Source of the DNA: Spirochaetota bacterium
GTDB taxonomy: Bacteria > Spirochaetota > UBA4802 > JAFGDQ01
Assembly (NCBI GenBank): GCA_034190085.1
Contig: JAXHTS010000053.1
Coordinates: forward strand, 1-42,859
Reading direction: 5' to 3'
Length of the DNA stretch: 42,859 nucleotides
Part shown: in pieces, positions 1 through 32,107 of the stretch
Position numbering within the stretch: the first letter of the stretch is position 1
How the letters are laid out: each line of letters begins with the position of its first letter
The notes under the pieces: generated by a model
Database searches by the model: none
Seen by the model: the letters and a program-made list of their open reading frames with translations, nothing else
Told to the model about the DNA's origin: nothing
Made by a program: the position numbers and the translations under genes

Positions 1-570
1 CTCAGCTGTATATCTCCGTCTAACTCGCTTCTCTTGCATCTTGTCCTACTGGTTATTACTCTCGGAGGATTTACCAACTTAATTTCTCGGTATTATTGTC
101 CCATTTCATTGAAGCGAGACACTTATACAAAGGTTGCTTTTGCTAAACTCTACACTACTAAAACTGCTATTACAGCTGCGGATATTTTAGACGATAGAGT
201 GTTGCCATTTTTTGAGGAGCAAGGGATTCCCCTTTTGAGGATATTAACAGATAGAGGGACTGAGTATTGTGGGAAAATGGAAAACCATGAATATCAGTTG
301 TATTTAGCAGTTGAAAATATTGATCATTCTAAAACAAAAGCCTGAAGTCCTCAATCGAATGGCATTTGTGAAAGATTTCATAAGACTGTGTTGAATGAAT
401 TTTATCGCGTTGCTTTTAGAAAAAAGATTTACAGAGATTTAGAGGAGTTATAAGAAGATCTTGACGATTGGATAAAAGAATATAATGATGAGAGGACACA
501 TACTGGCAAGTATTGTTACGGAAAAACGCTCATGCAAACATTTCTATATTCGAAGAATATTGCTCTATAA
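1..570 (+). pseudogene. IS481-like transposase remnant (DDE integrase core, decayed)
   Basis: Reading frame 1 encodes the C-terminal half of a DDE/integrase-core transposase, open at the left window edge. Visible hallmarks are LTDRGTEYCG (second catalytic Asp region), then SPQSNGICERFHKT, which carries the catalytic Glu, and a tail like DDWIKEYNDERTH. This arrangement is typical of IS481-type transposases. The frame is broken by stops at 343-345 (TGA), 451-453 (TAA) and 568-570 (TAA), while the surrounding protein stays well conserved. At least the second lies where the family usually has Gln (LEEL-stop-EDL), so a single C-to-T change explains it. The N-terminal part lies outside the window or is lost. 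The gene cannot make a working transposase. Family assignment is by motif reading and is fairly sure at the DDE level, less so at the IS481 level. Confidence 0.8.
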
Positions 571-771: not shown

Positions 772-2835
772 ATGAAGATTGTTTTAGTCTTCCCCCCATT
801 TTATTTAGAACCCATGTACAGTTTGCCGCCATTGGGCTTGGTTAATATAGCCACTACAGTAGCAGAAACAGAGCATCAGGTAGTGATTATCGACTTTGTC
901 CTCTCTCTACGCAATGGTGAGTTGAGTTTTGGAAAGAGTATATATAATGATTGCGCTGATATAATACTCAAAGAAAAACCTGATCTGGTTGGATTCTCAG
1001 CCCAGTGTACTACCTACCCCCCAGTTATCCAAATTGCCAAATTGATTAAAACCAAAAGTCCGGAAATTCTTACTATCATTGGAGGTCATAATGCCTCCTT
1101 TGTTGATCATTTGACTCTTGAGCAATACCCCTGGATTGACTCTATTATCCGCGGTGAAGGGGAGATGACTTTTAAGGAATTAACTGATGTCTATAGTAAG
1201 CTTTATAATCTGGATGGGGTAGCTGGTGTAACCTATCGAAGGGGGGATGAAATTATTAGAAATACGAATAGGGATCTTATTCAGAATTTAGATTCATTAT
1301 CTCTTCCAGATTATAGCTTTATTCCACCACTCTCGGTATATAGAGACGCCTATGAACTGCCTCGTAGCATCGCTATTTTAGAGGTTGGAAGAGGATGCCC
1401 TCATAAATGCATCTATTGTTCTGAATCTATATTTTGGAGGCGAAGCCCCAGACACTTCTCTGTGGATCGATTGACTCAAGAGATGCACAATCTTCATGAA
1501 AACTATGGAGCAGAGTGCTTTCTACTTGCATATGATCAATTCACTGCCCAAAAAGAATTCGTACAAGCATTCTGCCAAAGAGTGATAGAGGAGGGATTAA
1601 ATCATATACCTTGGTATTGCATATCAAGGCTTGACACAGTGAATGCATCTCTCCTTGCATTGATGAGGGATGCAGGATGTGAATCTATGTGTTATGGGAT
1701 TGATTCTGGCTCACAAAAGACACTGACTAATATTTGTAAAAAAATAGACAAGGATTTGCTCTACACACGCGTGAATGAGACTACAACCCCAGGAATCATT
1801 CCTACATTAAGCTTTGTTGTGGGTTTCCCATGGGAAAAGAGGTCGGATATTGACGATACATTGATCCTTTCGCTGAAAACAGGCGCATTGGGAAACATAA
1901 ATCCCCTAATTCAGATGCCTACTATACTGCCGGGTACTGAATTGTATCATAAATATAGAGATCGTCTTGTACGTGAGGTTGACACCTATTTTTCCCTAGG
2001 AATTGAGTTCTACAATGGACAACGTCTTCTTGATGATGAAGAGATAATTAATAAAAACTCCCAGATATATAGCAGCTTCTATAACCTTCAATGTGAGGGC
2101 TGTTCTCTATCAGAACTGAACCTCATCGTTACATATTTCCCCTTAATGATAACTTTATATCCAAAAACCCTTTTGTTATTGACAATTGAGTTTTCACAAT
2201 CGATTTCGATCTTCTTTACAGAATGGCTCTCCTGGATTACTCAACGATTGAAAAGGGATAAACCTATTCTCACTGCACAGGATTGCTATCAGCATTTTAC
2301 ATCCTTTGTTTATGAAAAATTTTATAATGACAGGAATATACATTTAAAACATCTTACTAATATTCTTAAGTATGAAACCTACAGCCTTGAGGTTGGGAAG
2401 TATAGCACTTCGCAAAGCTATTTTCAAATAGATCTCAATAATGTCCAAGAATTTATACCCCAAAGAAGCAATGATGTCCTTATTGGGAAATTTGATTTTG
2501 ATATTCCAATGATCATAAAAGATATAAAGAAAGGCCTTTATACAAAGGACTACCCACTCCAGGAGATATTACTTGTATTCCGACAGCAAGATGACAGGTT
2601 GACTGTAACAGAGATAAACGAATTTGGTAATATGTTTTTAAGCATGTGTGACGGAGAAAGTACATTATCATCCATATCGGATAAGCTCTATATTCATTAT
2701 AGCGCTGACATGAATCCAGAGGAGTTCTTTGAATCCTGTTTAGAGGCAGCTCAAGTATTAGGGGAGATGGGCTTACTTGTAATCAACCAATTTACCAATG
2801 ATAATAATCAGTTAATTGATGAAAAGATATTATAG
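772..2835 (+). CDS. cobalamin-binding-type radical SAM RiPP maturase with C-terminal PqqD-like domain
   Basis: This 687-residue protein has three parts. Residues 1 to about 140 form a Rossmann-like B12-binding domain (MKIVLVFPP, PLGLVNIA, IIGGHNASF), without a DxHxxG motif. A radical SAM core follows, with the [4Fe-4S] cluster motif CPHKCIYC (Cys209, Cys213, Cys216). After a helical extension, residues about 600-685 resemble PqqD, the RiPP recognition element: a hydrophobic strand, then FLSMCDGEST, an Ile-Ser-x-x-Leu helix, and a closing GEMGLLVI. B12 radical SAM enzymes commonly methylate unreactive carbons, and PqqD-like domains bind leader peptides. The next gene encodes a repetitive Cys-rich peptide, so peptide modification is the natural role. 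I chose ATG 772 over TTG 766; no strong Shine-Dalgarno site is visible. The exact reaction is unknown. Confidence 0.88.
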   Translation: MKIVLVFPPFYLEPMYSLPPLGLVNIATTVAETEHQVVIIDFVLSLRNGELSFGKSIYNDCADIILKEKPDLVGFSAQCTTYPPVIQIAKLIKTKSPEILTIIGGHNASFVDHLTLEQYPWIDSIIRGEGEMTFKELTDVYSKLYNLDGVAGVTYRRGDEIIRNTNRDLIQNLDSLSLPDYSFIPPLSVYRDAYELPRSIAILEVGRGCPHKCIYCSESIFWRRSPRHFSVDRLTQEMHNLHENYGAECFLLAYDQFTAQKEFVQAFCQRVIEEGLNHIPWYCISRLDTVNASLLALMRDAGCESMCYGIDSGSQKTLTNICKKIDKDLLYTRVNETTTPGIIPTLSFVVGFPWEKRSDIDDTLILSLKTGALGNINPLIQMPTILPGTELYHKYRDRLVREVDTYFSLGIEFYNGQRLLDDEEIINKNSQIYSSFYNLQCEGCSLSELNLIVTYFPLMITLYPKTLLLLTIEFSQSISIFFTEWLSWITQRLKRDKPILTAQDCYQHFTSFVYEKFYNDRNIHLKHLTNILKYETYSLEVGKYSTSQSYFQIDLNNVQEFIPQRSNDVLIGKFDFDIPMIIKDIKKGLYTKDYPLQEILLVFRQQDDRLTVTEINEFGNMFLSMCDGESTLSSISDKLYIHYSADMNPEEFFESCLEAAQVLGEMGLLVINQFTNDNNQLIDEKIL

Positions 2836-2848
2836 TAAATCCTCCCTC

Positions 2849-2876
2849 TTAGTTGATTATTAAGGGTTAGGATAAT
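2849..2876 (+). promoter_or_regulatory. possible internal promoter for the precursor peptide
   Basis: GATAAT at 2871-2876 matches the -10 consensus at five of six bases. A weak TTAGTT lies at 2849-2854, 16 bases upstream. An internal promoter would let the precursor be made in excess of its enzyme. The weak -35 keeps this tentative. Confidence 0.25.
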
Positions 2877-2905
2877 TCTCATTTAGTTGAGAAGCTCAAT
2901 GAGAA
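2876..2905 (+). promoter_or_regulatory. inverted repeat in the leader of the precursor gene
   Basis: TTCTCATT at 2876-2883 pairs exactly with AATGAGAA at 2898-2905. An inner TTGAG/CTCAA pair (2887-2891 and 2895-2899) can compete or stack. The structure ends about 20 bases before the Shine-Dalgarno site of the peptide gene, so it could influence mRNA stability or translation. No T-run follows, so it is not a normal terminator. Confidence 0.35.
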
Positions 2906-2940
2906 AAAGATATTTTAGTATAAAAGGAGGTGAAAGGGAT

Positions 2941-3081
2941 ATGCTAAAGGTTAAGAAAGTCGAAGAGAAGGTATCATATGCAAGCAATTGTCATGCGCCA
3001 TCGTGTCATGCTCCATCATGCCATGCGCCTTCTTGTCATGCGCCAGCTTGTCATGCTCCAGCCTGCCATGCTCCAGCATAA
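2941..3081 (+). CDS. RiPP-like precursor peptide with six Cys-His-Ala-Pro-(Ser/Ala) repeats
   Basis: This 46-residue peptide has a 16-residue charged leader (MLKVKKVEEKVSYASN) and then six perfect five-residue units: three CHAPS followed by three CHAPA. The core is therefore 30 residues with six Cys, six His and six Pro, and no linker. I chose ATG 2941 because an excellent Shine-Dalgarno site (AAGGAGGTG, ending at 2932) sits eight bases upstream; the longer upstream reading has no such site. It lies 105 bases after the radical SAM gene and just before a strong hairpin. A tiny, repetitive, Cys-rich product beside a radical SAM/PqqD-like enzyme is the classic picture of a RiPP precursor. The repeats could be cores for several identical small products, or one polydentate metal-binding chain. 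I do not recognise a described family with this exact repeat. Confidence 0.85.
   Translation: MLKVKKVEEKVSYASNCHAPSCHAPSCHAPSCHAPACHAPACHAPA
2989..3078 (+). repeat. six tandem 15-bp coding repeats
   Basis: Six in-frame 15-base units encode the repeat core. Units differ only at third codon positions, plus Ser to Ala in the fifth codon of units 4-6. The Cys codon pattern TGT, TGT, TGC occurs twice, in units 1-3 and 4-6. That suggests a 45-bp triplet was duplicated as a block. Confidence 0.9.
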
Positions 3082-3090
3082 TCAGACAGT

Positions 3091-3126
3091 CTAAGAAGGG
3101 GGAAGTTACTGCTTCCCCCTTCTTAG
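3091..3126 (+). terminator. perfect 15-bp hairpin after the precursor gene (partial terminator or mRNA end)
   Basis: CTAAGAAGGGGGAAG (3091-3105) is the exact reverse complement of 3112-3126, with a six-base loop TTACTG. It starts ten bases after the precursor stop. No long T-run follows, so it may act as a leaky terminator or 3' stabiliser that keeps precursor mRNA more abundant than the downstream enzyme mRNA. It is the strongest hairpin in the cluster. Confidence 0.7.
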
Positions 3127-3191
3127 TTGAAGTTAGAAATGAAAATATTATTAAAACAGCGGTTATCAAAAACCGAATTGATTATTTATCA

Positions 3192-4130
3192 ATGAAAGAG
3201 AGATTAATCGATTTACTAATTTGTCCAACCTGCCTCCCTCAGGAGAAGAGTTTAACGCCAGATGTCTTTGAGAGGATGGATGAGGACATCATAAAGGGAG
3301 AGTTAAAATGCCAAGGTTGCGGATTACGCTACCCCATCAAAGAGGGTATAGCCTCTTTATTGCCACATACACATAAACAACAGGTACATTCTTCACAATA
3401 TGAAGACTCATTGATGATATCATCCTATCTCTGGAGTCACTATGCTGACATCCTCGATGATGTCGAAGCTAGCCAAGCATATGTAAAATGGGCTGCTCTA
3501 ATCTCAAATAACCCTGGCCCTTCTCTTGATATAGGATGCGCTGTGGGTAGAATGACCTTTGAGATGGGTATGAAAAGCGACTATGCAATTGGGATTGACA
3601 GATCGGAAGGATTGATCCGAATGGCGAGAATGCTTATGTTGAATAGAGAACTAGAATTTACTTTGCTCAAGGAGGGTAAACTAATGGAAAATCGATTTAT
3701 TCATATTCCCGAAATATGGAAGAATAAAAATGTTGAGTTCATCATTGGTGACGCTCATAACCTTCCCTTTGCATCAAATACTTTTTCTACCATTGCATCC
3801 CTGAATATTATTGATAAAATTGCTTTGCCGATATCACACTTGAAAGAGATAAATAGAATAGCTATGAACCAGGGTACTCAATTCCTATTTTCTGATCCTT
3901 TCTCATGGTCACCAGAGGTCACTGATGAGATAAATTGGTTAGGAGGAAAGACAGAAGGACCCTTTGCTGGCGAAGGATTGGATAATTTGTTACAGATACT
4001 ACGAGGAAAAAATAATTATTTTTATCCATCATGGCAGATTGAGGATAAGGGACATATATTATGGAAAATACGCAAGCATCAAAATCTTTTTGAGATAATA
4101 AATAGCTCCTTTATCAAGGCCAGGAGGTAA
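3192..4130 (+). CDS. class I SAM methyltransferase with N-terminal Trm112-like zinc module
   Basis: The protein is 312 residues long. It opens with MKERLIDLLICPTC and a second CQGC pair near residue 40, the four-Cys pattern of Trm112-like zinc modules. The methyltransferase fold follows: motif I SLDIGCAVGRMTFEMG, an acidic ribose-binding strand ending GIDRSEG, and GDAHNLPFASNTFSTIASLN as the later core motif. An extra stretch with FTLLKEG lies between the second strand and the GDAHNLPF motif. I chose ATG 3192 because it begins the zinc module exactly; the longer open frame runs backwards through the hairpin and the peptide repeats out of frame. No clear Shine-Dalgarno site is seen. The stop lies three bases before the next start, so the two are an operon. 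A role in modifying the peptide, for example N-, S- or carboxyl-methylation, is inferred from context. Confidence 0.8.
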   Translation: MKERLIDLLICPTCLPQEKSLTPDVFERMDEDIIKGELKCQGCGLRYPIKEGIASLLPHTHKQQVHSSQYEDSLMISSYLWSHYADILDDVEASQAYVKWAALISNNPGPSLDIGCAVGRMTFEMGMKSDYAIGIDRSEGLIRMARMLMLNRELEFTLLKEGKLMENRFIHIPEIWKNKNVEFIIGDAHNLPFASNTFSTIASLNIIDKIALPISHLKEINRIAMNQGTQFLFSDPFSWSPEVTDEINWLGGKTEGPFAGEGLDNLLQILRGKNNYFYPSWQIEDKGHILWKIRKHQNLFEIINSSFIKARR

Positions 4131-4133
4131 GGG

Positions 4134-5087
4134 ATGATTGAGTCGTACTCTAATACTTCAATCATCGACGGGCATGTGGACCTCCTTTATGAGATGACTC
4201 GTAATCATAATGGCATACCCTTTGATAGGATAACAGATAGCCCTGTGACTATAGAGAGGTTGAAAAGGGGAAATGTGCGTATCATTGTGTCAGCCTATTA
4301 CTGTCCGGATGAATATAATGGAGGCTATTCTGCGGCTGAATATTTGGAAAATCTTTTCAATATATCAGAGTTATATCTAACAGGGCTCAAGCATGTGAAA
4401 TCTGCAAATGAGTTTGTTTTATGTTTCAATGGCGGGGAAGAGACAGGGATCATTTCTCTTATAGAGAACGCTGATGCCCTATTAGAGATGGGTATAGAAA
4501 AACTCGAAAAAAAGGGGATCAAGGTTGTTGGGCTTACTCATTCAGGGAGGAACAGAATCGGGGATGGCAATAGCATAAAATATCCAAATAAAATAACAAA
4601 TGATGGAAAAGCTCTTGTAAAATCATTAGATGATAGTGGGTTTGCCATAGATTTAGCGCATCTCTCAGAGACATGCTTCATGGAACTTTGTGATATATTC
4701 AAAGGCCCTATCATTTCCTCTCATACAGGGCTTCGTAAATTTTATGATATTCCTAGAAATCTCTCTCAAAAACAGACTGACATTATTTTGCACCGTGGTG
4801 GTCTGATTGGAATTACAATAAATCCGGAGATGCTTTCAGGTGATAAAATCGCTGATATAATAGATGTATTCCAGAACATCGATTTTATTGTTCAAAAATA
4901 TAATGCGAACAGCGTTGCATTGGGTAGTGACTTATGCGGTTTTGATTTTGTTAATCAGGGAATACCAGATATATCATATCTCAATGATTTAGCTGAAATT
5001 TTTGACAAACACGGATACACCAGCGAATCAATTAGGAAAATTATGGGTGAGAATTGGCTTCGATTCTATTGCTCTCTCCTTTCATAA
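4134..5087 (+). CDS. M19 family (renal/membrane-type) dipeptidase
   Basis: The 317-residue protein carries the zinc ligands of M19 dipeptidases in order: IDGHVDLLYEM (His-x-Asp), the bridging Glu in SLIENADAL, the LTHSGRNRIGDG block, IDLAHLSE (His), SSHTGLRKF (His), PRNLS and ALGSDLCGFD (Asp). These enzymes are di-zinc hydrolases of dipeptides, some tolerating D-residues at the C-terminal position. There is no signal peptide, so it should act in the cytoplasm. A strong AGGAGG at 4122-4127 overlaps the end of the methyltransferase gene, so translation is coupled. In this cluster the likely job is trimming or recycling peptide fragments, or releasing a very short final product. A general peptide-scavenging role is possible but less likely, given the tight operon. 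Confidence 0.85.
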   Translation: MIESYSNTSIIDGHVDLLYEMTRNHNGIPFDRITDSPVTIERLKRGNVRIIVSAYYCPDEYNGGYSAAEYLENLFNISELYLTGLKHVKSANEFVLCFNGGEETGIISLIENADALLEMGIEKLEKKGIKVVGLTHSGRNRIGDGNSIKYPNKITNDGKALVKSLDDSGFAIDLAHLSETCFMELCDIFKGPIISSHTGLRKFYDIPRNLSQKQTDIILHRGGLIGITINPEMLSGDKIADIIDVFQNIDFIVQKYNANSVALGSDLCGFDFVNQGIPDISYLNDLAEIFDKHGYTSESIRKIMGENWLRFYCSLLS

Positions 5088-5219: not shown

Positions 5220-6137
5220 CTAACTAGACACAATATATTCATAAGCGCTCAATCCAGCTGTGGCTCCATCCGCAGCGGCCATTACTATCTGTCTCCTTGA
5301 ATTCTCTCTCATATCACCTGCGGCAAATAAACCCTCAATCGGTGTCCTCATTTGCATATCCACAATCACTTCCCCTTTTTCATTTAGTATTTCATTTGGT
5401 AAAAAGGCTGTATTAGGCTCAAATCCTACTAAGACAAACACACCATCAACTTTTAGCTCACTTGACTCATTTGTTTTCTTGTTAATCAAGGATAGTGATT
5501 CAACCCCATTATCCCCATTTATGGAATGGACCACGGTATCATAAACTGGATCAATTTTATTGTTACTTAAAACCCGATTCTGTAGAATCTTAGCTCCCCT
5601 AAATTGATCCCGTCTATGGATAAGGTAGACCCTGCTTGCAAAGCGTGTTAAATAGTCAGCATCCTCTAAAGCGGTATTACCCCCTCCGATAACCGCTGTG
5701 ATCTTATCTTTATAGAAAGCCCCATCGCATGTAGCACAAAAAGATACACCCCTACCAAGTAATTCACTCTCTCCAGGAATATTTAATTTCTTATGATTAG
5801 TGCCAGTGGCAACCAAAACGGATTTGCAATCCAATGTTCGGCCCTCTGACAGGATAACATGAAAACTACCGCTGTTATTGTCTTTCCTGATTTCATTGAT
5901 TACGCCGGATTGTATCTCAGCTCCAAGTCTTCTGGCCTGATTTTCCATTGCAGACATTAGTTCCCATCCAGGGATTGGATCAACAAATCCAGGATAGTTC
6001 TCAACTTCATTTGTGTTAATTACCTGCCCTCCAGGTGATAACTTCTCGATAACAACTAAACTCAAACCTGCTCTTATACCATAAATGGCCGCTGTAAGAC
6101 CAGCAGGTCCTGCTCCAATGATAATTAAATCATGCAT
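5220..6137 (-). CDS. trxB: thioredoxin reductase (NADPH)
   Basis: The 305-residue length is typical. The N-terminal FAD motif is GAGPAGLTAAIYG, and the redox-active CATCDG has Cys134 and Cys137. NADPH binding is shown by GGGNTALEDA and the HRRDQFR phosphate-binding stretch. The C-terminal FAD contact is AAGDMRE. The enzyme passes electrons from NADPH through FAD and the Cys pair to thioredoxin in the cytoplasm. An AAGGGGAG Shine-Dalgarno site precedes ATG 6137. It converges on the dipeptidase gene across a 132-base gap. Its own upstream gap suggests its own promoter. No thioredoxin gene is in the window. Confidence 0.95.
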   Translation of the reverse strand: MHDLIIIGAGPAGLTAAIYGIRAGLSLVVIEKLSPGGQVINTNEVENYPGFVDPIPGWELMSAMENQARRLGAEIQSGVINEIRKDNNSGSFHVILSEGRTLDCKSVLVATGTNHKKLNIPGESELLGRGVSFCATCDGAFYKDKITAVIGGGNTALEDADYLTRFASRVYLIHRRDQFRGAKILQNRVLSNNKIDPVYDTVVHSINGDNGVESLSLINKKTNESSELKVDGVFVLVGFEPNTAFLPNEILNEKGEVIVDMQMRTPIEGLFAAGDMRENSRRQIVMAAADGATAGLSAYEYIVSS

Positions 6138-29804: not shown

Positions 29805-31703
29805 TTAGAGCTTGCCCCAAAGCTTGGATTTTTTGGGTTTTGATCCTTCTTCCGATTCCTGTGTTAAGGGGATGGTGAGATGATATACACCATGATCGAC
29901 CTTGGTCTTGTAGGGTATATTAGCCTTTTCCAAAACATGCAGCATGGACTTGTTAGAAGAGAGTATGTCAGCGGTTAGAGCCTCAATATTTCGCTCTTTG
30001 GCTATCTCGATTAAACGCTTGAGAAGATAAGAGGCAATACCTCGATTCTGGTATCCTTCATCAACTACAAAAGCCAAATCAGCACATCTTTTATCAGGCC
30101 ACATAACATATCTCCCCTCTGCTATTATTGTTCCATAACCAGAATCTCCAACCACACCCACTAAAGAGAGTATATCGTGATGATCTACATTAACATAAAG
30201 CTGCATCTTATAATGGGGCATGGCCTTCATTGGAGAAAAATATCTATAATATATGGCCTTATCAGAGAATCTATAGAAGAGCCTGCGCATCTGTTCTTCA
30301 TCCGATGGCAATATGGGACGAAATTTTACCATCAAATCCCCTGGAAACATTTTTGTTTCAATAAGCTCATTGGGATAATGGGTTGCTGACTCAGGAATAT
30401 ATATCTGATCCTTATAAATAAGATTCATATCCTTAGCCTGATTGATCAATTCTTCACGATAATCTGGATGTGCTATATCGATTAGAGCCATTGCCCTCTG
30501 GCGAACTGTGCGTCCCCTAAGGGCTGCAATGCCATTCTCCGTAACAACATAGTCGATTAAATTGCGTCCTGCCAAGGAATCCTGATAGTCCTTTAATATG
30601 GGAAGGATGTTTGATTCAAGGTTTCGATTGCGAGAGGGCAGAGCTATAACTATTTTACCACCCTCAGACATAGATACACCGGATAGATAATCCTGAGACT
30701 CGCCAGGCCCTGCAGAAATGCGCCCTCGTCCTGTATGAAAGGCCACCTCCCCTGTCAGGTCTACCTGACGCGATGGGAATATCATGATAAAATTATCTTG
30801 CTTGGCAATCTCTTTTGGATCCGCAACAACATCAATCCCTTGAAACTCAACTAATGGATTTTTGTGCAACCAGTCATAAAGTTCCCGTGTTCCATATGCA
30901 TAGGATACAACGCTTCTCCCAAGGAAGGACCCCTTGCGTTGATTTGTGACAGCCCCACTCTTGATCAGATCCATAATGGCATCAGTAACGAAAGCGGAAT
31001 GTATGCCCAATTCACGCTTGTTTGTAAGCTGCTTAGCCAAAGCCTCATAAAGCGAACCCAAGGAAAATGCAACACAACTCCCATCATTGACCAATTCTGC
31101 GATATTCTTAGCCACTCCATCGAATACAGGATGAATGTTGGGTCTAGAAATCTCAATTACAGGATCACTACTCTCAACAAAGCAATCGAATGCGTCTACC
31201 GGAATCAATGTATTCCCCAATGTATAAGGCACCTCAGGATTGATCTCGCCCACAGAAAAGGACGCTTGTTCGATTGCCTGACGCGCTGCATCAACCGATA
31301 CACCTAAACTAACATAACCCCTGTCATCAGGAAGAGAAATCTGTACAAAAGCTATATCTATCTGCAGGGTTTCTGAACTTATAAGAGACGGGATCTTTGA
31401 AAAACGCGCAGGTATAAGATCCACCCTGCCCTCGGCTATTGCGCTATATGCAACCCAACCAGCAAAAAAGGTTTTGAGACGAAAGGAGTCCGGATACTTC
31501 TCCTCAATGGAAACAGTATCGCCTATACTCACGAGCTGAATGAGTTCAACATCCATGATGTTGCCCTCTTCTGAAGTCAACATGCTCTTTATTAGAGTTC
31601 GAGGCTCACCAGTACCGGTGCTTAAAAACAAGCTATCCCCCGGTTTTATCCTTCTAATCACCTCATCAACATCTACAATTTTTTCTCTCCAACCTTCACT
31701 CAT
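29805..31703 (-). CDS. acetyl-CoA hydrolase/CoA-transferase fused to a GNAT acetyltransferase domain
   Basis: The 632-residue protein has an N-terminal CoA-transferase of the acetyl-CoA hydrolase / 4-hydroxybutyrate CoA-transferase type (residues about 1-430), with the glutamate-bearing motif YVVTENGIAALRG and RAMALIDIAHPDYREEL. A GNAT domain follows (about 455-600), with the acetyl-CoA-binding block YQNRGIASYLLKRL. It probably moves CoA between short acids or hydrolyses acyl-CoA; the GNAT part may acetylate a lysine for control. ATG 31703 is placed best, six bases after GGGGA; TTG 31709 and ATG 31706 are alternatives. This fusion type is known in other bacteria. Confidence 0.87.
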   Translation of the reverse strand: MSEGWREKIVDVDEVIRRIKPGDSLFLSTGTGEPRTLIKSMLTSEEGNIMDVELIQLVSIGDTVSIEEKYPDSFRLKTFFAGWVAYSAIAEGRVDLIPARFSKIPSLISSETLQIDIAFVQISLPDDRGYVSLGVSVDAARQAIEQASFSVGEINPEVPYTLGNTLIPVDAFDCFVESSDPVIEISRPNIHPVFDGVAKNIAELVNDGSCVAFSLGSLYEALAKQLTNKRELGIHSAFVTDAIMDLIKSGAVTNQRKGSFLGRSVVSYAYGTRELYDWLHKNPLVEFQGIDVVADPKEIAKQDNFIMIFPSRQVDLTGEVAFHTGRGRISAGPGESQDYLSGVSMSEGGKIVIALPSRNRNLESNILPILKDYQDSLAGRNLIDYVVTENGIAALRGRTVRQRAMALIDIAHPDYREELINQAKDMNLIYKDQIYIPESATHYPNELIETKMFPGDLMVKFRPILPSDEEQMRRLFYRFSDKAIYYRYFSPMKAMPHYKMQLYVNVDHHDILSLVGVVGDSGYGTIIAEGRYVMWPDKRCADLAFVVDEGYQNRGIASYLLKRLIEIAKERNIEALTADILSSNKSMLHVLEKANIPYKTKVDHGVYHLTIPLTQESEEGSKPKKSKLWGKL

Positions 31704-32107
31704 CATCAATCCCCGAAAAGGATAAGAGTATACTTAACATCACATACAATTCATAATATAATTAAATCCCACCATTTAAGGGTATCACAGTTCTTTCCAT
31801 AAGTCAACTCAACTCTGTTATTCGCCTTACATTTCACATCCTCATTCATCAAAACCAATTTTTATATGATTCATATAATTTTCAAGGTTAGTACTGAGTC
31901 CTTATTGTGGGGCAGGCATCATTATGGTTGATATCAATAATCCTTTATCAAATAATTAAATGTGTAGATGACTATATGTGTTGCAGGAATGCTAAAGTCA
32001 TTAGCAACCTTCAGTTCATGCTCATCCATAGCACCTGAGCATTTTCAAATACCTATCAGGTTCATAATGAAATTTATTACAGCTTTTTATATATCTCATT
32101 ATAATTT
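31704..32107. other. about 400-base intergenic region
   Basis: The gap lies between two minus-strand genes and holds the presumed promoter of the CoA-transferase gene. On the minus strand, 31934-32029 opens a 31-codon frame (MDEHELKVANDF...) with no ribosome site. A stop lies just above it, so it is at best a gene fragment. Confidence 0.35.

What the first reader, a model, noticed from the sequence alone, without database searches (positions are those of the whole stretch)
772..5087. Candidate undescribed RiPP system: B12 radical SAM/PqqD-like fusion, Cys-His-Ala-Pro hexarepeat precursor, methyltransferase and M19 dipeptidase
Four plus-strand genes sit together and alone. Seen: CPHKCIYC radical SAM motif, a PqqD-like C-terminal domain, a 46-residue precursor of six CHAP(S/A) units, a class I methyltransferase and an M19 dipeptidase, with the last two in a tight operon. 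Known: PqqD-like domains bind leaders, and B12 radical SAM enzymes often methylate carbon. Inferred: the cluster makes a modified Cys-His-rich peptide, perhaps a metal-binding molecule or several small repeat-derived products. I do not recognise a described RiPP class with this precursor.
Basis: partly seen in the sequence, partly recalled or inferred. Interest (0 to 1): 0.92.

Follow-up and report, generated by a model that had tools for sequence, protein, structure and literature searches.

The report
Peptide-templated thio/seleno-histidine pathway (candidate)
Four neighbouring genes make a small peptide of repeated Cys-His-Ala-Pro units and the enzymes to alter it; in 14 related clusters the cysteine is encoded instead as selenocysteine, and the genes stand in for the oxygen-dependent enzyme of ovothiol synthesis, so this is probably an undescribed anaerobic route to sulfur- or selenium-bearing histidine antioxidants.

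Summary
A B12-radical SAM enzyme with a C-terminal leader-binding (RRE) fold, a 46-residue (CHAPx)6 peptide, a methyltransferase and an M19 dipeptidase lie on one strand at 772-5087. I found the same enzyme in 35 other genomes; 35 of the 36 loci have the peptide. (1) The methyltransferase is related to OvoM/OvoA-C, which methylates 5-thiohistidine to ovothiol. (2) In Geobacterales, genomes with the cluster carry a stand-alone OvoM and no OvoA sulfoxide synthase, while 49 other OvoM-bearing genomes keep OvoA and lack the cluster. (3) In 14 clusters the peptide is a single core, ...[UGA]-His-Ala-Pro..., with a conserved SECIS-like hairpin 18 nt downstream (SelB present in both such genomes tested): a selenocysteine-histidine core. 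A PLP lyase relative sits beside eight clusters. Best explanation: an O2-independent, peptide-templated transfer of S (or Se) from Cys (Sec) to the next His, released by proteolysis and M19, cleaved by a C-S/C-Se lyase and N-methylated to ovothiol A or ovoselenol. The genetic system is near certain; the product is inferred (about 0.6). A metal-binding peptide is not supported.

The parts
772..2835 (+). B12-binding radical SAM enzyme with C-terminal RRE-like domain (687 aa)
   Evidence: Pfam B12-binding 1.2e-16 and Radical_SAM 7.7e-15; AF2 model pLDDT 89.4; Foldseek TokK/TsrM/MgmA/CysS/OxsB/AprD4; 46-58% identical homologues in 35 other genomes
1396..1419 (+). CPHKCIYC: CX3CX2C radical SAM cluster motif (residues 209-216)
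   Evidence: translation; all three Cys invariant in 32 homologues
2434..2784 (+). RiPP recognition element-like domain (about residues 555-671)
   Evidence: PqqD hit in 4 of 10 homologues, best 2.2e-4; ApyI RiPP-binding model hits 27 of 32; fold matches 3dee, TglHI, PqqD 5sxy, TbiB1 5v1u, lasso B1 6jx3
2925..2932 (+). Shine-Dalgarno AGGAGGTG of the peptide gene; GGAGGTG is found before almost all homologous peptide genes
   Evidence: sequence; homologues
2941..3081 (+). Precursor peptide, 46 aa: leader MLKVKKVEEKVSYASN (2941-2988) and core (CHAPS)3(CHAPA)3 (2989-3078), stop TAA
   Evidence: leader and core conserved in 9 aligned peptides; profile finds it only in genomes with the radical SAM gene, apart from two weak hits
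3091..3126 (+). 15-bp hairpin after the peptide gene; terminator- or attenuator-like, without a T tract here
   Evidence: fold -30.7 kcal/mol; comparable hairpin-like sequence, often with a T tract, in many Cys-type relatives
3192..4130 (+). Trm112-OvoM-like methyltransferase, 312 aa (Trm112 3195-3347; ovoA_Cterm-like 3399-4106)
   Evidence: TIGR04345 100 bits, below its 170-bit cutoff; nearest solved structures OvoA 6e-20, OvsM 4e-19, OvoM 3e-14
4134..5087 (+). M19 membrane-dipeptidase-family peptidase, 317 aa
   Evidence: Pfam PF01244 5.7e-54; metal ligands H14, D16, E111, H176, H197 and D266 invariant in 7 homologues; GliJ among its relatives

Best explanation
This is a RiPP-type, O2-independent route to a chalcogen-bearing histidine. 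The leader (MLKxxKVExK) docks on the RRE domain of the B12-radical SAM enzyme (predicted fold). The enzyme joins the S of each Cys (Se of Sec in the selenium variants) to the imidazole, probably C5, of the His that follows it (inferred). Proteolysis of the Ala-Pro spacers and the M19 dipeptidase release the crosslinked Cys-His unit (inferred). A PLP-dependent class-V lyase, encoded beside eight related clusters but not in this window, would cleave the Cys moiety off, leaving 5-thiohistidine or 5-selenohistidine (inferred). The OvoM-type methyltransferase then N-methylates it to ovothiol A or ovoselenol (inferred from family). One peptide thus yields several small molecules in the Cys type. The Sec type has a single core, probably because one SECIS hairpin serves one UGA. 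Shown here: the genes, their conservation, the peptide motif and its Cys/Sec exchange, the SECIS-like element, the RRE-like fold and the replacement of OvoA. Not shown: any chemical step.
For: Conserved unit: 36 radical SAM loci, 35 with the peptide, 27 of 33 with M19. Replacement of OvoA: among 59 Geobacterales genomes with a canonical OvoM domain or clear OvoA sequence, 8 of 8 cluster-bearing genomes have a stand-alone OvoM and no TIGR04344, while 49 genomes with OvoA have no cluster (Fisher p=2e-8). Stand-alone OvoM arose in separate places in the OvoM tree, one of them (G419) nested among fused OvoA. An OvoM-like methyltransferase is present in 12/12 cluster genomes against 6/68 others (p=3e-10) and in 15/16 against 10/40 (p=2.5e-6). 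Cys/Sec exchange: 14 peptides read ...UGA-H-A-P-(T/S)-(E/Q)-SPVRR with a hairpin 18 nt after UGA and GU in its loop; Ser TCT, Arg CGG and Arg AGA are invariant 14/14 while the His and Ala codons vary. SelB is over cutoff in both Sec-type genomes tested. One peptide carries CHAPS and UHAPT together, and one locus has both a Cys-type and a Sec-type peptide. PLP class-V enzyme adjacent in 8 loci. EgtE, a relative, turns a thioether directly into the thiol (PMC4493562).
Against: No chemistry is shown. The radical SAM enzyme's best-named relative, ApyD, C-methylates Tyr, and many B12-radical SAM enzymes methylate. The window's Trm112-OvoM subfamily scores below the OvoM cutoff and also occurs in genomes without the cluster, some with full OvoA. 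G321 and G359 have stand-alone OvoM with neither OvoA nor cluster. M19 is missing in six loci with room. No lyase gene was identified in the window's genome. The co-occurrence tests are not corrected for phylogeny. No ovothiol report from these bacteria was found.
Confidence: 0.6

Rival explanations
1. A RiPP whose B12-radical SAM enzyme C-methylates the core (His, Ala or Pro carbons), with the methyltransferase adding another methyl group, giving methylated peptides or fragments of unknown role.
For: B12-radical SAM enzymes are mostly methylases; nearest named model ApyD (253 bits, cutoff 750) makes beta-methyltyrosine; fold matches TokK, TsrM, MgmA and CysS.
Against: Does not explain the exact Cys-to-Sec exchange in front of His, the OvoM-family partner, the mutual exclusion with OvoA, or the adjacent PLP lyase relatives. 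Non-methylating B12-radical SAM enzymes (OxsB, AprD4, BchE) are also among the matches.
Confidence: 0.2
2. A metal-binding Cys/His peptide (metallophore or metal buffer).
For: Cys-His-rich repeats; RRE-like domain related to that of MNIO partner proteins (HvfC, ApyI) which serve metal-binding RiPPs.
Against: Sec-type peptides have one Sec-His and mostly no other Cys; a dipeptidase is conserved; no metal transporter or MNIO is conserved in the cluster; OvoA exclusion is unexplained.
Confidence: 0.08
3. Same logic, different product: S/Se is placed on C2 of imidazole, or another chalcogen-histidine is the end product, or the crosslinked peptide itself is the product.
For: Chemistry is not determined by sequence; the window's methyltransferase is a divergent OvoM relative also found outside the cluster.
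Against: The partner methyltransferase family acts on 5-thio- or 5-selenohistidine; the excluded enzyme is OvoA, not an ergothioneine enzyme.
Confidence: 0.1
4. The repeat ORF is a chance or low-complexity reading frame.
For: Most loci from the CHxxx pattern scan were such accidents.
Against: Shuffles give none; synonymous variation inside the repeats; conserved leader, ribosome site and position in 35 of 36 loci.
Confidence: 0.01

Closest known systems
Ovothiol pathway (OvoA, OvoB, OvoC/OvoM) and ovoselenol pathway (OvsM)
   Same: Related methyltransferase family; a PLP beta-lyase step; net transfer of S/Se onto histidine (PMC12631010; ovoselenol cited in PMC13188914).
   Different: Known routes couple free His and Cys with an O2-dependent iron enzyme; here a ribosomal peptide and a radical SAM enzyme replace it.
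ApyD and aminopyruvatide RiPPs
   Same: B12-radical SAM with RRE; best NCBIfam match of the window's enzyme and matched by all 32 homologues.
   Different: 253 of the required 750 bits; no MNIO, P450 or ApyS; different precursor; ApyD makes beta-methyltyrosine.
CefA 'Cys-every-fifth' RiPP peptides (NCBIfam NF038108)
   Same: Cys at every fifth residue; weak match E 0.0005-0.03.
   Different: 14-20 bits against a cutoff of 30 in every peptide that matched; may be periodicity only.
Sacti-/ranthipeptides (e.g. PapA/PapB: Cys-Asp thioethers at six CX3D motifs)
   Same: Radical SAM thioether formation on repeated Cys motifs; activity with Sec-substituted peptides reported (PMC10470005).
   Different: PapB is a SPASM radical SAM enzyme without B12 (PMC10470005 and own knowledge); here a B12 domain and no SPASM match.
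3-Thiaglutamate (TglA/TglHI) and other peptide-scaffolded small molecules
   Same: A ribosomal peptide as scaffold for a small S-containing amino acid; TglHI is a fold match of the RRE domain.
   Different: Cys is added from tRNA by another enzyme and modified by an MNIO (PMC9016710, abstract seen; MNIO from own knowledge).
Thio(seleno)oxazole RiPPs (Lewis et al. 2021, cited in PMC13188914; paper not held)
   Same: Precedent, by its title, for selenium in a radical SAM RiPP.
   Different: Different product class; details not checked.

Membership tests
RiPP (general) | Small precursor gene with leader and core beside modifying enzymes | tested here: met
   conserved leader and core in 35 of 36 loci
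RiPP (general) | Leader-binding domain | tested here: met
   by predicted fold: NGO1945, TglHI, PqqD, lasso B1; ApyI model in 27 of 32; binding itself not tested
RiPP (general) | Post-translational modification of the core | not testable with these tools
   needs mass spectrometry
Aminopyruvatide (apy) | MNIO (class-defining) and ApyD above cutoff | tested here: not met
   253 bits vs 750; no MNIO among the four genes of the cluster
CefA family NF038108 | Score above curated cutoff | tested here: not met
   14-20 bits vs 30
OvoA ovothiol pathway | OvoA sulfoxide synthase (TIGR04344) | tested here: not met
   absent from 9 of 9 cluster genomes beside the window's; window genome only a 70-bit off-family hit (cutoff 400)
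5-thiohistidine N-methyltransferase (OvoM, TIGR04345) | Score above curated cutoff | tested here: not met
   window protein 100 bits vs 170; the 8 Geobacterales cluster genomes have a separate canonical OvoM at 305-326 bits
5-thiohistidine N-methyltransferase (OvoM, TIGR04345) | Methylates 5-thiohistidine | not testable with these tools
   needs enzyme assay
M19 dipeptidase | Family profile and metal ligands | tested here: met
   PF01244 5.7e-54; ligands invariant
Bacterial selenoprotein (Sec-type relatives, not the window) | In-frame UGA with Cys homologues, SECIS hairpin downstream, Sec machinery | tested here: met
   14 peptides; Cys homologues; SelB in G701 and G834, not tested in the other 12
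Sactipeptide/ranthipeptide | SPASM-type radical SAM without B12 domain | tested here: not met
   B12-binding domain found in all 10 scanned, no SPASM match

The most novel reading that the evidence does not exclude
A radical SAM RiPP system is the anaerobic, non-homologous replacement for OvoA: it uses ribosomal Cys-His or Sec-His peptides as templates to make 5-thiohistidine or 5-selenohistidine, so that in the Sec type the selenium of a small-molecule antioxidant (ovoselenol) is delivered by the genetic code through UGA.
Probability: 0.5. Interest if true: 0.97.

Novelty: new variant of a known kind. Interest (0 to 1): 0.93.

Why it matters
If right, it answers how anaerobes without OvoA could make ovothiol-type antioxidants, gives a B12-radical SAM enzyme an unexpected C-S or C-Se bond-forming role on imidazole, and shows a natural product whose selenium atom is placed by UGA recoding. 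It also explains a 'RiPP' whose end product is not a peptide. The natural Cys/Sec pair of precursors makes the mechanism directly testable, and the peptide motif ([C/U]HAP behind MLKxxKVExK) gives a simple search handle.

Tried and rejected
Searching the window's phylum for the radical SAM gene found nothing beyond the window's genome at E<=1e-60 in 296 genomes. Rhizobial plasmid hits (27-33% identity, about 70% coverage) belong to other B12-radical SAM families. No SECIS-pattern match in viral contigs. A radical SAM-peptide fusion in G521 was an artefact of my ORF extension: a TAA lies between them. Covariation of the SECIS hairpin could not be tested because its stem is nearly invariant; I used synonymous-codon conservation instead. 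A profile of the RRE domain found no PDB sequence relative, hence the fold search. Metal-peptide and plain-methylation readings were considered and ranked lower.
Full report
CHECK OF THE OBSERVATION. The four genes are present as described. The radical SAM gene (772-2835) carries CPHKCIYC and B12-binding and Radical_SAM domains. The peptide gene (2941-3081) has a strong ribosome site and encodes MLKVKKVEEKVSYASN followed by three CHAPS and three CHAPA units. Two adjacent CHAPx units were found 0 times in 100 dinucleotide shuffles of the window. Within CHAP the six units differ only at third codon positions, so the peptide, not the DNA repeat, is what is kept. The methyltransferase begins at 3192, has a Trm112 domain and ends 3 bp before the M19 gene. 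A perfect 15-bp hairpin follows the peptide gene.

RELATIVES. Three carry a homologous radical SAM gene: Geoalkalibacter sp. (L008), a Geobacteraceae MAG (L109) and a deltaproteobacterial MAG (L057). Profiles of the radical SAM enzyme then found 8 of 141 genomes of the order of L109, 12 of 395 of the phylum of L057 and 16 of 56 of one class, but none besides the window's own genome in 296 genomes of the window's phylum. The window's enzyme groups with that of another genome, G455, among four-gene clusters (96/90 support), and a degraded transposase lies directly upstream, so recent horizontal arrival is likely (inference).

THE UNIT. Of 36 radical SAM loci, 35 have the peptide (G867 has lost it by a deletion; in G358 it lies on another contig). 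M19 is adjacent in 27 of 33 loci with room, and an OvoM-like methyltransferase is in the cluster in 12. Peptide alignment: leader MLKxxKVExK, then 5-8 units of C-H-(A/G)-P-x in nine peptides. M19 metal ligands and the catalytic Asp are invariant.

THE RADICAL SAM ENZYME. AlphaFold2 gives a confident model (pLDDT 89.4) matching cobalamin-dependent radical SAM enzymes and kin (TokK, TsrM, MgmA, CysS, OxsB, AprD4). The C-terminal domain, weakly PqqD-like by sequence and matched by the ApyI RiPP-binding model in 27 of 32 homologues, has as its best fold matches NGO1945, TglHI, PqqD and leader-bound B1 proteins of lasso-type systems. It is an RRE by predicted fold. The best-named relative of the whole enzyme is ApyD, far below its cutoff. 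ApyD is an RRE-bearing B12-radical SAM enzyme that makes beta-methyltyrosine (PMC10635010).

THE METHYLTRANSFERASE AND THE OVOTHIOL LINK. Its closest solved structures are OvoA (C-terminal part), OvsM and OvoM, and its best NCBIfam model is ovoA_Cterm (100 bits, cutoff 170). I therefore profiled OvoA across 80 genomes. In Geobacterales without the cluster, the OvoM domain sits in a frame of about 700-860 aa with the TIGR04344 sulfoxide synthase; 49 genomes have clear OvoA sequence, four of them in pieces. In all eight cluster-bearing Geobacterales genomes the OvoM domain stands alone (frames of 259-405 aa) and TIGR04344 is absent (Fisher p=2e-8; not phylogeny-corrected). In the OvoM tree these stand-alone genes fall in separate places: a seven-row clade, G354/G355, and G419 nested among fused OvoA. 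So the association is unlikely to be a single inheritance. G000 and G296 have no canonical OvoM but carry the Trm112-OvoM in the cluster. In two further sets an OvoM-like gene is present in 12/12 and 15/16 cluster genomes against 6/68 and 10/40 others. Caveats: the Trm112-OvoM subfamily also occurs alone in genomes without the cluster, and G321 and G359 have stand-alone OvoM with neither system.

SELENOCYSTEINE FORM. In 14 clusters the peptide is short and, after the same leader, reads ...V-P-[TGA]-H-A-P-(T/S)-(E/Q)-S-P-V-R-R (the residues before the TGA vary a little), mostly without any other Cys. A hairpin TCTCC(G/A)-GTn-CGGAGA begins 18 nt after the TGA in all 14, with GU in its loop, as in bacterial SECIS elements (comparison with fdhF from own knowledge). 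The codons TCT, CGG and AGA inside it are invariant although Ser and Arg have six codons each, while His splits 7:7 and Ala uses three codons: the constraint is on the RNA. SelB is above cutoff in both Sec-type genomes tested. Sec-type radical SAM enzymes form one clade among Cys types (100/99). One locus (L264) has a Cys-type and a Sec-type peptide side by side; one peptide (L261) carries CHAPS and UHAPT together. The Cys-to-Sec exchange at exactly the residue before His marks the chalcogen as the reactive atom (inference). That Sec peptides are single-core and Cys peptides multi-core fits one SECIS hairpin per UGA (inference).

THE MISSING LYASE. A PLP-dependent class-V enzyme lies convergent beside M19, or beside a partly sequenced cluster, in eight loci (G296, G788, G770, G834, G455, G878, G867, G869). 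It resembles SufS/CsdA, selenocysteine lyase and EgtE, the ergothioneine C-S lyase. By eye it lacks the cysteine loop of desulfurases. EgtE converts a thioether directly to the thiol without a reductant (PMC4493562), which is the step needed here.

MECHANISM. Best-supported scheme: leader docking on the RRE; radical SAM coupling of Cys-S (Sec-Se) to the neighbouring imidazole; proteolysis at the Ala-Pro spacers and cleavage by M19, whose relatives include GliJ of gliotoxin synthesis; C-S lyase; N-methylation to ovothiol A or ovoselenol. The known pathway needs an O2-dependent sulfoxide synthase, a beta-lyase and the same kind of methyltransferase (PMC12631010). Only the genetics is shown here; every chemical step is inferred. 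I put 0.97 on a real RiPP-type system and 0.6 on chalcogen transfer to histidine as its purpose.

NOVELTY. No RiPP class with this precursor was found: the only RiPP-class family model it approaches (CefA, Cys-every-fifth) stays below cutoff. The held literature has no radical SAM or peptide route to ovothiol. The 2026 prokaryotic selenoproteome review, searched by term, mentions RiPPs only through one cited thio(seleno)oxazole paper, which is precedent for selenium in a radical SAM RiPP. Key papers (Kayrouz 2024, Lewis 2021, a 2025 selenoprotein survey) were not held, so prior mention cannot be excluded. It is built from known parts, hence 'new variant of a known kind'; the Sec-encoded small-molecule route would be new in kind if proven.

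Noticed in passing
window 1-520: Degraded IS transposase (TDRGTEYCG ... SPQSNGICERFHKTVLNEFYR across stops) directly upstream of the cluster; fits horizontal arrival. Its first piece had no Pfam match.
   Followed up: partly
window 5220-6137 (-): Thioredoxin-disulfide reductase (TIGR01292, 372 bits) convergent with the M19 gene, about 130 bp away; could be chance or serve a low-mass thiol.
   Followed up: partly
L264 6100-6690: One locus holds both a Cys-type peptide with irregular CHAPG/CHAPA/CHAPT units and a Sec-type peptide.
   Followed up: yes
L262 5934-7970: In G867 a deletion has joined the radical SAM C-terminus to the tail ...ESPVRR of the Sec-type peptide, removing the UHAP core.
   Followed up: partly
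L179 and L178: G321 and G359 have stand-alone OvoM with no OvoA and no radical SAM/CHAP system: incomplete genomes, relics, or another source of 5-thiohistidine.
   Followed up: partly
L185 6408-7346 and L186 6227-7165: Trm112-OvoM-like methyltransferases outside the cluster, each followed by what looks like a molybdopterin oxidoreductase (by eye); their substrate is unknown.
   Followed up: no
L172, L174, L175, L178: Stand-alone OvoM lies beside what look like CbiM/CbiQ/CbiO cobalt-transport genes in four Geobacterales genomes of the cluster-bearing group (recognised by eye).
   Followed up: no
L131, L132, L134, L135, L109: A nitroreductase-family gene lies next to the radical SAM gene, mostly divergent from it, in several Geobacterales loci, and a BadF/DUF2229 activase gene is nearby in some; probably shared synteny.
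   Followed up: partly
window 29805-31709 (-): Acetyl-CoA hydrolase/transferase fused to a GNAT acetyltransferase domain.
   Followed up: no
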